Assembly: GCF_015155755.1 (NCBI RefSeq)
Contig: NZ_VWPI01000165.1
Span: 1-36,838, forward strand
Length of the DNA: 36,838 nt
Direction: 5' to 3'
DNA from: Komagataeibacter sp. FXV3
GTDB lineage: Bacteria > Pseudomonadota > Alphaproteobacteria > Acetobacterales > Acetobacteraceae
Below, one piece after another: positions 16,857 through 26,034 of the stretch. The position numbers were made by a program, and so were the translations under genes. The notes under the pieces are model-generated. The model was not told where the DNA came from. It ran no database searches and saw only the letters and a list, made by a program, of their open reading frames with translations. Position 1 is the first letter of the stretch. Each line of letters begins with the position of its first letter.

Positions 16857-16932
16857 TGGTAATAAAAGCTCCTGGGCGCCGCCTTTTTTTCGGAAAGGCG
16901 GCGTCTTTCGATGATTGTTTTAAAAAGCTTCA
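16857..16932 (-). repeat. Intergenic hairpin repeat, copy B
   Basis: This copy lies downstream of rmlA and is read on the minus strand. Its core stem CGCCGCCTTT (16877-16886) pairs with AAAGGCGGCG (16894-16903). The flank AGCTTTTATTACC on the minus strand matches the AGCTTTTATTTTCATT flank of copy A. It may also act as a transcription end for rmlA, though no clean T tract follows the stem. From ~16933 to the ribosome site of the next gene nothing further is seen. Confidence 0.7.
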
Positions 16933-23207: not shown

Positions 23208-23292
23208 TCAAGGATTTTTTTCAAAAAAACTCATTGATAAAAATAACAAAAGTTTTTGGATGCCGCCTTTTTCAAAAAGGCGGCAATCCTTG
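23208..23292 (-). repeat. Intergenic hairpin repeat, copy C
   Basis: This copy lies right after the dehydrogenase stop and reads on the minus strand. It has the cleanest core: TGCCGCCTTTTT (23261-23272) pairs perfectly with AAAAAGGCGGCA (23274-23285) around a single base. The minus-strand flank CATCCAAAAACTTTTGTTATTTTTATC follows the same pattern as copies A, B and D. The rest, to ~23466, shows no gene. Confidence 0.75.
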
Positions 23293-23466: not shown

Positions 23467-23496
23467 TTGACCGTGGCCGCGATCCGGGCTTTTAAG
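23467..23496 (+). promoter_or_regulatory. Promoter of the fluoride-riboswitch operon
   Basis: TTGACC (23467-23472) and TTTAAG (23491-23496) are 18 bases apart. Transcription would start about seven bases further on, exactly where the riboswitch aptamer begins (23504). That fit makes the promoter more convincing than its hexamers alone. Confidence 0.6.
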
Positions 23497-23503
23497 AACC
23501 CAC

Positions 23504-23567
23504 GGCAATGGACTCTGCCAGACCATGATGGTCGAACCGCTCCCTTCGTGGGGCTGATGATTCCTAC
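23504..23567 (+). promoter_or_regulatory. Fluoride riboswitch aptamer (crcB motif)
   Basis: The RNA has the parts of the crcB motif in order: GGCAATGG at the 5' end with stem GGCA (23504-23507)/TGCC (23516-23519), an optional small hairpin GACC/GGTC (23521-23533), the conserved AACCGC, a second stem of CTCCC with GGGG, and the 3' signature GCTGATGATTCCTAC. The 5' GGA can pair with the 3' TCC as the family pseudoknot. Fluoride riboswitches turn on fluoride exporters, and the gene downstream is a CLC-F-type exporter. The only notable deviation is A instead of G in the 5' GGCGATGG. Confidence 0.85.
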
Positions 23568-23599
23568 CCAATGCCATTGCGGCAACAAGGGGAGGAATC
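23559..23599 (+). promoter_or_regulatory. Alternative hairpin, candidate riboswitch expression platform
   Basis: GATTCCTACCC (23559-23569), the 3' part of the aptamer, can pair with GGGGAGGAATC (23589-23599) with one mismatch. The aptamer and this hairpin are mutually exclusive, as in a switch. The hairpin would hide a Shine-Dalgarno-like GGGGAGG. In addition GCAATGG (23505-23511) is complementary to CCATTGC (23574-23580). How this controls the gene is unclear because the first in-frame start is 33 bases after GGAGG. Confidence 0.5.
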
Positions 23600-23627
23600 C
23601 GTGTAGGGCCATAGATATCATGTCAGC

Positions 23628-25058
23628 ATGCAGGCCACAGTAGCCTGTTTTTCCATGAAAAAATGCCGGGTCTGGCGAATATCAATGAATATTGACGTAA
23701 TCATGCGCGATGGCTGCCGTGTGGTGGTCGTGTTGCTGAAATGGGCGTTTCTTCTAATCGGGCTGTCAGCGTGTGTTGGCAGTGCATGCGCCGCGTTCCT
23801 GTGGCTGCTGGATCGGGCGGCGGATATACGGCTGTCCCACCCGTGGCTGCTGTATGGCCTGCCGGTGGCGGGTGTGGCAATTGGCCTGCTCTATCACTGG
23901 TTTGGCCGCACCGCGGAGGGCGGCAATAACCTGATCGTGGACCAGATTCACGAACCCGGCGGTGGCGTGCCCCTGCGCATGGCGCCACTGGTGCTGGTGG
24001 GAACGGTTGTCAGTCACCTGTTCGGGGCATCGGTCGGGCGGGAAGGCACGGCGGTGCAGATGGGTGGCAGCATTGCCAGTGCAATCGGTCGGTTGTGCCG
24101 TCTGTGCGACCCACATGAAATCCGTATCCTGCTGATATCTGGCATTGCCGCGGGCTTTGCCGCCGTATTTGGCACGCCGGTGGCGGGTGCGGTGTTCGGC
24201 ATGGAGGTGCTGCGGGTAGGGCGCATTGAATATGGCGCGCTGGTTCCCGTCATCCTTGCGGCCACCATGGCGGACTGGGTCTGCCATGCATGGGGGATCG
24301 AGCATGTACCCTATCTCCTTGGCTTCCATGGTTATGCCGGGCTGGACGGGCATTTTTTCCATGCCGACATCATCCTGCTGGCCAAGGTGATTGTGGCGGG
24401 CGTGGCGTTTGGCCTGGCCAGCCTGCTGTTTGCGGAATCCGTGCACCGGGTTGCGGCGGTGTTGCGCCGCGTCTGCCCCACGCCGTGGCTGCGTCCCGCC
24501 ATTGGTGGGGTCGTGACCATCGCGCTGGTATGGATATGCGGGTCACGCGATTATCTGGGGCTGGGGATTATCGCCCCGGAAAATGGGGGGGCGTCTATCC
24601 TCGATTTCTTCGGGCCTGCGCATTATCCGCTGGCATGGGCGTGGAAGCTGGTTTTTACCGTCGCGGTGCTGGCGGCGGGCTTCAAGGGCGGGGAGGTCAC
24701 GCCCCTGTTCTTCATCGGGGCCGGTCTGGGCAATGCGCTGTCCGCCTGGCTGCATGCACCGGTGGACCTGATGGCGGCGGTGGGGTTCGTGGCCGTGTTT
24801 GCCGGTGCGGCCAATACGCCGCTGGCCTGCACGCTTATGGGGGTTGAACTGTTCGGGGCGGCTGATATCGTCTATTTTGCCACGGGTTGCTTCGTGGCCT
24901 ATGCCTGTTCCGGGCATTCGGGGATCTATCTGGCGCAACGTATCGCGGTGCCCAAGCGGTACGCCGCCCGTATGCTGACTGGCGTCACATTGCGGCAGGC
25001 GCGCACGGGATATCGGCCGGATACACCTACCTCATCGGGCAAAAAGGCATCATCATGA
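23628..25058 (+). CDS. CLC-family transporter, probable CLC-F fluoride/proton antiporter
   Basis: This 476-residue membrane protein has the CLC fold but not the chloride signatures. In place of GSGIP it has GGNNLI (G99-N100-N101-L102-I103); in place of GREGP it has GREGT with gating Glu139; in place of GGIFAP it has GGEVTP (Thr358). These substitutions mark the fluoride-selective CLC-F clade, which exports F- against H+ influx. The fluoride riboswitch upstream supports this independently. The start is uncertain: ATG 23628, 23655 and 23685 are in frame, none with a good ribosome site; the first membrane helix begins near 23720. The stop overlaps the next ATG by four bases, so two exported proteins follow in the operon. 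Confidence 0.88.
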   Translation: MQATVACFSMKKCRVWRISMNIDVIMRDGCRVVVVLLKWAFLLIGLSACVGSACAAFLWLLDRAADIRLSHPWLLYGLPVAGVAIGLLYHWFGRTAEGGNNLIVDQIHEPGGGVPLRMAPLVLVGTVVSHLFGASVGREGTAVQMGGSIASAIGRLCRLCDPHEIRILLISGIAAGFAAVFGTPVAGAVFGMEVLRVGRIEYGALVPVILAATMADWVCHAWGIEHVPYLLGFHGYAGLDGHFFHADIILLAKVIVAGVAFGLASLLFAESVHRVAAVLRRVCPTPWLRPAIGGVVTIALVWICGSRDYLGLGIIAPENGGASILDFFGPAHYPLAWAWKLVFTVAVLAAGFKGGEVTPLFFIGAGLGNALSAWLHAPVDLMAAVGFVAVFAGAANTPLACTLMGVELFGAADIVYFATGCFVAYACSGHSGIYLAQRIAVPKRYAARMLTGVTLRQARTGYRPDTPTSSGKKASS

Positions 25059-25540
25059 TCATGTCCCACGGATCAACGCCCTCGGGCCGCATGGATCGTG
25101 CCGTAGCCATGGGCAGCCTGTGCCTGGCTGTCTGCATGGGGCCGGTCAGTCATGCATGGGCGACGGAAAATGCGCCCCCTTCGCCTGCGGAACGGCGGAT
25201 CATCACGCAGCGCATCACCGCACTTCCCGCCCGGGAACGTCCGGGTGTGATGGGGCAGGACATGGCATGGCAGATGACCACCTTCTTGTGTCAGGACGCC
25301 GCACGTTCCGTGCTGGTCCGCAGGGGCGCGCAGCCACACCGCTTCTTCCTGCAGGATGATCGTCCCGATAGTCAGGTCGTGGTCAGTCCGGCCCTGATAA
25401 AAGGGCGCGGTCAGTTTCTGCCAGTCACCAGCCCCATGCGCTGGGTGGCGTTTACATGGTCCTGCCATCTTGACCCCGCGACCGGTCATGTCGTGCGTTT
25501 TGACGTGAACCCGACGACACGGCAGGGCACGGAACCATGA
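25055..25540 (+). CDS. Exported protein, DUF930-like
   Basis: The 161-residue product has a signal peptide (hydrophobic AVAMGSLCLAVCMGPVSHAWA, cleavage likely after AWA); an internal ATG at 25091 may be the real start. The mature part has two cysteines, in FLCQDAARSVL and FTWSCHLDPATGHVVRFDV. The pattern of Cys near a helix, PDSQVVV in the middle and W-x-x-F/Y-x-W/C-x-C near the end resembles DUF930, a family of periplasmic proteins of unknown role. The match is by eye and moderate. ATGA overlaps join it to the CLC gene upstream and the next gene downstream, so all three should be made from the fluoride-responsive transcript. Confidence 0.75.
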   Translation: MIMSHGSTPSGRMDRAVAMGSLCLAVCMGPVSHAWATENAPPSPAERRIITQRITALPARERPGVMGQDMAWQMTTFLCQDAARSVLVRRGAQPHRFFLQDDRPDSQVVVSPALIKGRGQFLPVTSPMRWVAFTWSCHLDPATGHVVRFDVNPTTRQGTEP

Positions 25541-26034
25541 TGCGGTGGATGGTGCCGGGTATTGCCCTCGGTCTGTCCTGCCTTCCGGTCTATGCCCATG
25601 CCCATGCCCATGCGGTTCGTGATTGCACATTCCATCATGCAGCCATGGTGCTGGATGATGGGCAGGGCGCGTTTGATGGCATGATGCATGGCGGAATGTG
25701 GCTTGTGGTGCGCAATACGGGTCCACGGGCCTGTTCGCTGGCATCGGCCGGTCCGATATCGTTTGAAGATGGGCACCACCATACCATCCCGGTCCGGTGG
25801 CAACAGGGCGTGGCCGTGCCAGACGGTATGCTGCGTCCGGGCGGGCAGGTCAGGACAGCCCTGCGCTGGGTGTCAGGCAATGCGTTTGACCCGGGTTACT
25901 GCATCACCCCGGCAACATTGGTGCTGCCATTGCACGGGGGTGCGCTACGACAATCCTTCGGTCGCAGCCTGTGCGCCCCCTCCGGCGTGCCACCCACACT
26001 GGAACAGCAGCCGTGGCGGGCAGCGCCAGAATGA
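25537..26034 (+). CDS. Exported protein with DUF4232-like domain, histidine-rich
   Basis: The 165-residue product begins with a signal peptide (MVPGIALGLSCLPVYAHAHA). The mature part has His-rich patches, HAHAHAV, CTFHHAAM, MMHGGMW and DGHHHT, and four cysteines. The segment GGMWLVVRNTGPRACSLASAGPISFED matches the DUF4232 pattern of a beta-sandwich with an x-x-N-x-x-x-x-x-C-x-L signature. No activity is known for the family. It overlaps the previous stop by four bases. A metal-binding or periplasmic stress role beside fluoride export is speculation. A repeat copy lies right after it. Confidence 0.75.
   Translation: MMRWMVPGIALGLSCLPVYAHAHAHAVRDCTFHHAAMVLDDGQGAFDGMMHGGMWLVVRNTGPRACSLASAGPISFEDGHHHTIPVRWQQGVAVPDGMLRPGGQVRTALRWVSGNAFDPGYCITPATLVLPLHGGALRQSFGRSLCAPSGVPPTLEQQPWRAAPE

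What the first reader, a model, noticed from the sequence alone, without database searches (positions are those of the whole stretch)
23467..26034. Fluoride-riboswitch operon that joins a CLC-F exporter to two exported proteins
Seen: a crcB-type aptamer right behind a promoter, a CLC protein with GNNLI, GREGT and GGEVTP in place of the chloride motifs, and two signal-peptide proteins (DUF930-like, DUF4232-like) joined by two successive ATGA overlaps. Known: fluoride riboswitches control CLC-F or Fluc exporters. Inference: the two periplasmic proteins are part of the fluoride response, which I do not know to be described.
Basis: partly seen in the sequence, partly recalled or inferred. Interest (0 to 1): 0.75.

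Follow-up and report, generated by a model that had tools for sequence, protein, structure and literature searches.

The report
Fluoride-controlled exporter operon with secreted partners
A vinegar bacterium's fluoride-sensing RNA switch stands before a fluoride pump gene and two small genes for probably secreted proteins of unknown job that were found only together with the pump in this genus, hinting at a part of fluoride defence that works outside the cell membrane.

Summary
A fluoride riboswitch (RF01734, 41.5 bits, cut-off 34) precedes a CLC whose best PDB match is the CLC-F fluoride/proton antiporter (E 1e-54; ClcA 2e-4). Two ORFs with signal-peptide-like starts follow by ATGA overlaps. 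The second is DUF4232; 'DUF930' for the first is not supported.

Riboswitch plus CLC-F is ordinary in related Alphaproteobacteria. The two secreted genes are the new part: P2 follows CLC-F in 9 of 79 loci, all 9 Komagataeibacter. In 19 genomes of the genus, CLC-F, P2 and P3 are found in the same 12 and missing in the same 7. One of six cassette-free genomes fetched has the two flanking genes about 170 nt apart, as if the block came or went whole. P2 and P3 are under purifying selection.

Against a fluoride-only role: a genome of another genus has P2 and P3 in one ORF, with no riboswitch or CLC-F found. I read P2-P3 as an older secreted pair recruited into a fluoride-induced operon. Co-induction rests on anatomy; their biochemical role is inferred.

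The parts
23467..23495 (+). promoter-like element: TTGACC (-35), 17 nt, TTTTAA (poor -10)
   Evidence: read from sequence; TTGAC invariant in 10 of 10 leaders aligned; not found by the consensus scan
23495..23573 (+). fluoride riboswitch aptamer (crcB motif, RF01734)
   Evidence: 41.5 bits, cut-off 34; the only one found in this assembly
23559..23569 (+). 3' end of the aptamer, GATTCCTACCC, able to pair with the SD-like stretch at 23589-23599 (proposed switch helix)
   Evidence: pairing score 23 against shuffled mean 13.2, 0 of 200 shuffles as good
23589..23606 (+). SD-like GGGGAGGAATC followed by C and GTG TAG (start codon then stop)
   Evidence: GTG plus TAG or TAA in 12 of 12 leaders checked; function unknown
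23685..25058 (+). clcF: CLC-F-type fluoride/proton antiporter (457 aa)
25055..25540 (+). P2: probably secreted protein, no Pfam family, two invariant Cys (C79, C137); ATGA overlap with clcF
25537..26034 (+). P3: probably secreted DUF4232-family protein, four invariant Cys (C30, C66, C122, C146); ATGA overlap with P2
26084..26106 (.). GCCGCC...GGCGGC hairpin between the convergent P3 and PEP_hydrolase genes, possible terminator; a similar one at 23262-23284 precedes the leader

Best explanation
This is most likely a fluoride-induced three-gene operon. HF enters the cell in the acid habitat of an acetic acid bacterium and dissociates; fluoride with Mg2+ folds the aptamer. Folding engages the GATTCCTACCC strand, which otherwise pairs with the SD-like GGGGAGGAATC, so expression of the downstream genes rises. 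CLC-F then exports fluoride in exchange for protons. P2 and P3 are translated by coupling at the ATGA overlaps, exported through Sec, and held by disulfides in the periplasm, where they act together. They are a pre-existing secreted pair recruited into the fluoride operon of a Komagataeibacter ancestor and since kept or lost with CLC-F. Shown by computation: aptamer, CLC-F identity, overlaps, co-inheritance in one genus, one cassette-free site, purifying selection, and a natural P2-P3 fusion elsewhere. Inferred: one transcript, fluoride induction, export, disulfides, joint action of P2 and P3, and a protective envelope function.
For: Aptamer over the curated cut-off. CLC nearest to CLC-F in PDB with all three signature motifs, which PMC11139923 (section 10, part 1 of 2 read) gives as GNNLI/GMGLI, GREGT/V and GEVTP. 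P2 in 9 of 79 CLC-F loci, all 9 Komagataeibacter, P3 in 8 of those 9. In 19 genomes of the genus CLC-F (E <= 1e-60), P2 and P3 are found in the same 12 and missing in the same 7. G637 has the two flanking genes 173 nt apart (match ends) with no cassette. ATGA overlap clcF-P2 in 9 of 9 loci read, window included, and P2-P3 in 7 of 8, with a 1-nt overlap in the eighth. Median dN/dS 0.18 (CLC), 0.36 (P2), 0.31 (P3) over 28 pairs of 8 loci. P2 and P3 in one ORF in G030 (Pfam sees only its DUF4232 part). Switch helix: in 9 of 10 Komagataeibacter loci at or below 2% of shuffles.
Against: The 12 genomes are related, so co-inheritance may rest on one gain and few losses. P2 and P3 are absent from 70 of 79 CLC-F loci. 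No riboswitch or CLC-F-level match was found in G030, which has the fusion. P3 homologues in 13 of 249 family genomes show no common fluoride neighbour in the nine stretches fetched besides G030's, though one in G116 lies about 8 kb from a CLC-F-like gene. Two of the 12 genomes show damage: a transposase-like ORF (by eye) at the end of P2 in G630 and P2 split over two frames in G629. G629 also has a second CLC-F with other partners and no second P2 or P3 copy. In five of six cassette-free genomes fetched the flanking genes are not side by side. The SD-like stretch lies about 90 nt before the clcF start, so simple SD masking does not fully explain control. In L012 14% of shuffles pair as well. 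The scan lists three terminator-like sites on the + strand inside clcF (5 sites in all, 2.7 expected). No expression data.
Confidence: 0.72

Rival explanations
1. Hitchhiking: the riboswitch serves CLC-F alone. P2 and P3 are a secreted pair with an unrelated envelope task, co-transcribed because they moved in as a unit and cost little.
For: P2-P3 exist in one ORF without CLC-F or riboswitch found in G030; P3 homologues have no common fluoride neighbour in the stretches read; 70 of 79 CLC-F loci lack them; dN/dS of P2 and P3 is about twice that of CLC; damage in 2 of 12 genomes.
Against: All 12 genomes of the genus with CLC-F have both and none of the 7 without CLC-F has either; overlaps keep translation coupled in loci whose CLC-F is 87-92% and in loci whose CLC-F is 78-80% identical to the window's.
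Confidence: 0.4
2. General acid or envelope-stress module: fluoride is only the inducing signal, and P2-P3 act against low pH or metal imbalance that comes with HF, not on fluoride itself.
For: A universal-stress gene stands with CrcB behind the riboswitch of Komagataeibacter G637. PMC11139923 (passages and section 10 part 1) ties fluoride stress to acid and divalent-metal stress.
Against: No direct evidence; structure searches gave no significant match (best E 0.059 for P2, 0.16 for P3).
Confidence: 0.3
3. The CLC is a chloride transporter and the aptamer match is chance.
For: Pfam names the domain Voltage_CLC.
Against: Aptamer at E 2.5e-8; Rfam finds one upstream of the CLC match in 25 of 26 related loci tested and the aptamer's 3' motif is within 420 nt in 72 of 79. 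CLC-F motifs present; the tree parts the 15 rows that hold this CLC from 13 others at 100/99 (long branches flagged).
Confidence: 0.02

Closest known systems
Fluoride-riboswitch CLC-F (eriC-F) operons
   Same: Aptamer close upstream of a CLC-F with all three signature motifs
   Different: Two probably secreted genes are coupled behind clcF; 33 other CLC-F loci read by eye (of 37 given) have Usp-like, CrcB-like, DUF190-like or unrelated neighbours
Enterobacter cloacae FRM fluoride operon (ppaC, uspA, eno, gpmA, crcB, orf5249; PMC5533749, passages seen, part of the abstract among them)
   Same: One fluoride riboswitch drives several genes beyond the exporter; the paper reports that the added genes contribute to resistance
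   Different: That operon uses a Fluc channel and enzymes inhibited by fluoride; no secreted pair is named in the passages seen
DUF4232 (PF14016)
   Same: P3 matches over residues 39-160 above the curated cut-off
   Different: Function unknown; here behind a fluoride riboswitch and paired with P2
DUF930 (PF06059)
   Different: No Pfam match for any of 10 P2 members

Membership tests
Fluoride riboswitch (RF01734) | covariance-model score above the gathering threshold | tested here: met
   41.5 bits against 34
Fluoride riboswitch (RF01734) | binds fluoride and raises expression | not testable with these tools
   needs in-line probing or reporter assay
CLC-F fluoride/proton antiporter | GNNLI/GMGLI, GREGT/V and GEVTP signatures (PMC11139923) | tested here: met
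   GNNLI, GREGT, GGEVTP present
CLC-F fluoride/proton antiporter | groups with known CLC-F, not with chloride CLCs | tested here: met
   PDB best hit 6d0j E 1.1e-54 against ClcA 1.9e-4; tree 100/99, with the E. casseliflavus row on a long branch and inner order of the group partly unresolved
CLC-F fluoride/proton antiporter | fluoride over chloride transport | not testable with these tools
   needs liposome flux assay
DUF4232 (PF14016), P3 | score above Pfam cut-off | tested here: met
   45.5 bits against 27
DUF930 (PF06059), P2 | score above Pfam cut-off | tested here: not met
   no DUF930 match for 10 of 10 members; the genome search with the DUF930 model rang nowhere, controls included, so it says nothing
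Single operon | one transcript for clcF-P2-P3 | tested here: inconclusive
   overlapping genes; the scan found no promoter-like site but lists terminator-like sites inside clcF, near chance number; transcript not measured

The most novel reading that the evidence does not exclude
P2 and P3 form a dedicated extracytoplasmic arm of fluoride defence: secreted partners that bind, buffer or neutralise fluoride (or metal fluorides) delivered to the acid periplasm by CLC-F, or shield envelope enzymes from it, so that exported fluoride does not simply return as HF.
Probability: 0.27. Interest if true: 0.7.

Novelty: new variant of a known kind. Interest (0 to 1): 0.42.

Why it matters
At low pH exported fluoride can return as HF (PMC11139923, passages), so export alone may be a partly futile cycle; how acid-living bacteria cope outside the membrane is, as far as I know, open. 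A co-inherited pair of probably secreted proteins behind a fluoride switch gives two named genes with which to test whether fluoride defence has a periplasmic part, in a genus known for vinegar and cellulose production.

Tried and rejected
DUF930 identity of P2: not supported; the genome search with PF06059 was uninformative because no control rang. PHROGs gave nothing usable for P2 or P3. P2 had no match on 72,556 plasmid records. A weak P2 match in G185 (E 1.6e-4) fell to E 0.052 in a tblastn of the fetched stretch and was dropped. P2 model class-wide: only the own genome of 385.

Structure: AlphaFold from 9 sequences each gave P2 mean pLDDT 64.2 and P3 72.3. Foldseek against PDB gave no match at E <= 0.001 for either, so fold resemblances carry no weight.

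Leader hairpin at 23630-23648: terminator-like with a T-run in the window, but the sister leaders aligned lack the full T-run. The stretches between GTG-stop and clcF did not fold better than shuffles (z from -1.85 to 0.55 in 11 rows; that script stopped on the twelfth row, L088, for want of the exact start motif; one search then read that row). The hairpin arms are not in one register in the alignment, so I make no covariation claim and did not run the pair count.

Read-through of the GTG-TAG stop into clcF: rejected, because the frame relation to clcF varies (offset 0, 1 or 2).

Inverted GCCGCC...GGCGGC hairpins on both sides as a sign of a mobile cassette: not pursued; a third lies at 16878 in the window, so terminators seem likelier.

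Literature: searches (listings only) showed no paper on secreted or DUF4232 genes in fluoride operons, for 'fluoride riboswitch' with 'DUF4232', found none. Passages of PMC9495176 were seen and not used. The gene lists of the original riboswitch papers were not seen, so prior listing cannot be excluded.

Full report
WHAT IS THERE. The window comes from a Komagataeibacter-like genome (nearest CLC-F proteins 87-92% identical, in K. europaeus, K. swingsii, K. diospyri and K. intermedius). Rfam finds two RNAs in the window at the curated cut-offs, a tRNA and a fluoride riboswitch at 23495-23573 + (41.5 bits, cut-off 34, E 2.5e-8). No other fluoride riboswitch was found in the assembly. Downstream on the same strand lie a CLC protein (23685-25058), P2 (25055-25540) and P3 (25537-26034), each of the last two starting inside the previous stop as ATGA. 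The next gene, a PEP_hydrolase-family protein, is convergent, with a GC-rich hairpin between.

THE EXPORTER. The best solved relatives are the CLC-F structures 6d0j, 6d0k and 6d0n (E 1e-54 to 1e-53); chloride ClcA entries follow at 2e-4 or weaker. The signature motifs given for CLC-F in PMC11139923 (section 10, part 1 of 2 read) are all present. A tree of 28 CLC rows (window, E. casseliflavus and 26 of 27 loci given; L136 fell out) splits at 100/99 into 15 rows with this CLC and 13 others. Of the 15, 12 (the window and 11 loci) carry GREGT and GGEVTP with GNNLI or, once, GANLI; the E. casseliflavus row has GREGV and GGEVTP and sits on a long branch; L130 and L131 showed only GREGT. Of the 13 others, 9 carry GSGIP and GREGP with GGLFAP or GGIFAP, one of them from the window's own genome; 4 showed no clear set of motifs.

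THE SWITCH. Rfam finds a fluoride riboswitch upstream of the CLC match in 16 of 16 related loci tested and 9 of 10 (26 of the 79 loci were tested this way). By a simple motif, the aptamer's 3' end lies within 420 nt upstream in 72 of 79. So riboswitch plus CLC-F is the ordinary state among these Alphaproteobacterial loci, which are the best 80 of 96 found. The aptamer's 3' strand can pair with a downstream SD-like stretch; of 73 loci tested, window included, 31 do so better than 95% of shuffles, and 42 do not. In the 10 Komagataeibacter loci tested the pairing lies at the same place (18-19 nt on), in 9 of them at or below 2% of shuffles and in L012 at 14%. In several other genera read an ATG follows soon after that stretch. 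In Komagataeibacter the clcF start lies 84-86 nt after a GTG that directly follows it, and this GTG is followed at once by a stop codon in 12 of 12 leaders checked (11 TAG, 1 TAA). I do not know what this does.

THE TWO SMALL GENES. P3 is a DUF4232 protein. P2 has no Pfam family, and DUF930 is not supported. Invariant cysteines (two in P2, four in P3) fit secreted proteins. Of 79 CLC-F loci fetched, 9 have P2 behind CLC-F, all 9 from Komagataeibacter; 8 of these 9 have P3, and in the ninth (L007) no P3 was found before the contig ends. Among 19 genomes of the genus, CLC-F (E <= 1e-60), P2 and P3 are each found in the same 12 and missing in the same 7. These genomes overlap with the nine loci (for example G630 with L007 and G629 with L009, by equal contig lengths and coordinates), and the species are related, so they are not independent tests.

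The riboswitch is in 16 of 19 genomes: the 12 with CLC-F, and G632, G635, G636 and G637. In G637 it precedes a Usp gene and a CrcB gene; G635 shows similar ORFs and G632 a Usp-like one by eye, and I did not resolve G636. In G637 the genes that flank the cassette in the window are 173 nt apart (match ends) with no cassette between, so leader, clcF, P2 and P3 seem to have come or gone as one block. In five other cassette-free genomes fetched (G184, G060, G632, G636, G633) the upstream flanking gene was not found within the stretch around the PEP_hydrolase gene, and in the seventh, G635, the PEP_hydrolase gene was not found at all. In G640, which has the cassette, the PEP_hydrolase gene lies on the other side of it.

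Overlap of clcF with P2 is ATGA in 9 of 9 loci read, window included; P2 with P3 is ATGA in 7 of 8 and one base in the other. Both small genes are under purifying selection: median dN/dS 0.36 and 0.31 against 0.18 for clcF, 28 pairs of 8 loci (L007 and L009 left out because P2-P3 is damaged there).

OUTSIDE THE GENUS. P2 as a single-sequence query in 249 genomes of the family matched 5: three Komagataeibacter (own included), G030, and G185, weak and dropped. In G030 P2 and P3 form one ORF (L086 7551-8489), between an aquaporin-family gene and LysR and FUSC genes. No fluoride riboswitch and no CLC-F-level match was found in G030; its best CLC match has chloride motifs. P3 homologues occur in 13 of 249 family genomes, 8 of 102 genera, the window's genus included. 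In the nine further stretches fetched, read by eye without a family search, I saw no common fluoride neighbour; the matches in G066 and G080 and one in G116 were not fetched. One P3 match of G116 lies about 8 kb from its CLC-F-like gene. Several of these genomes have a riboswitch elsewhere. This suggests that P2 and P3 work as a pair and that the pair is not fluoride-specific by origin.

READING. The firmest statement is that in Komagataeibacter a fluoride riboswitch stands before CLC-F plus two probably secreted proteins, inherited together. The most likely role of P2-P3 is a joint periplasmic task useful when fluoride rises; whether it acts on fluoride, on acid or metal stress, or is a passenger is undecided. 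[quoted passage not shown]

RESULTS AGAINST. In G630 a transposase-like ORF (by eye) abuts the end of P2 and P3 lies on another contig. In G629 P2 is split over two frames, by mutation or by assembly error. G629 also has a second CLC-F cluster with a DUF190-like ORF (18 bits, below the cut-off of 23.4) and Usp-like and CrcB-like ORFs, near transposase-like ORFs, and no second P2 or P3 copy. The scan lists terminator-like sites inside clcF, at about chance number. The fold searches gave nothing.

Noticed in passing
window 23589-23606; same in L007-L014, L082, L088, L205: SD-like GGGGAGGAATCC (or near it) followed at once by GTG and a stop (TAG, once TAA), 84-86 nt before the clcF start: a conserved start-stop pair or part of an alternative RNA fold.
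   Followed up: partly
L174 5086-6562 (G637); L175 (G635): Other Komagataeibacter have a fluoride riboswitch by a Usp gene and a CrcB (Fluc) gene instead of CLC-F (in G635 by eye), so the genus seems split between two fluoride operons.
   Followed up: partly
L176 5390-8508 (G629 C34): A second fluoride riboswitch and CLC-F (65% identical over residues 14-285) with DUF190-like, Usp-like and CrcB-like ORFs, next to transposase-like and copper-ATPase-like ORFs by eye; looks horizontally acquired.
   Followed up: partly
L018 (484, 3600, 3776) and L016 (456, 3571, 3747): Three fluoride riboswitches within about 3.4 kb in Acidomonas methanolica and Gluconobacter aidae, around Usp-like, CrcB-like, phosphoglycerate-mutase-like and CLC-F ORFs (named by eye).
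   Followed up: no
L177 from about 6676 to its end; L178 3902 to its end (G630): Transposase-like ORFs (by eye) beside P2 and beside P3 of K. europaeus, which lie on different contigs.
   Followed up: partly
window 16878, 23262, 26084: Recurring intergenic GCCGCC-T/A-run-GGCGGC hairpins, two of them in opposite orientation on either side of the cassette; L205 has one on the left and a partly decayed one on the right.
   Followed up: partly
L086 7551-8489 (G030): P2 and P3 in one predicted secreted protein beside LysR and FUSC-family genes, without a fluoride riboswitch in the 16 kb fetched.
   Followed up: partly
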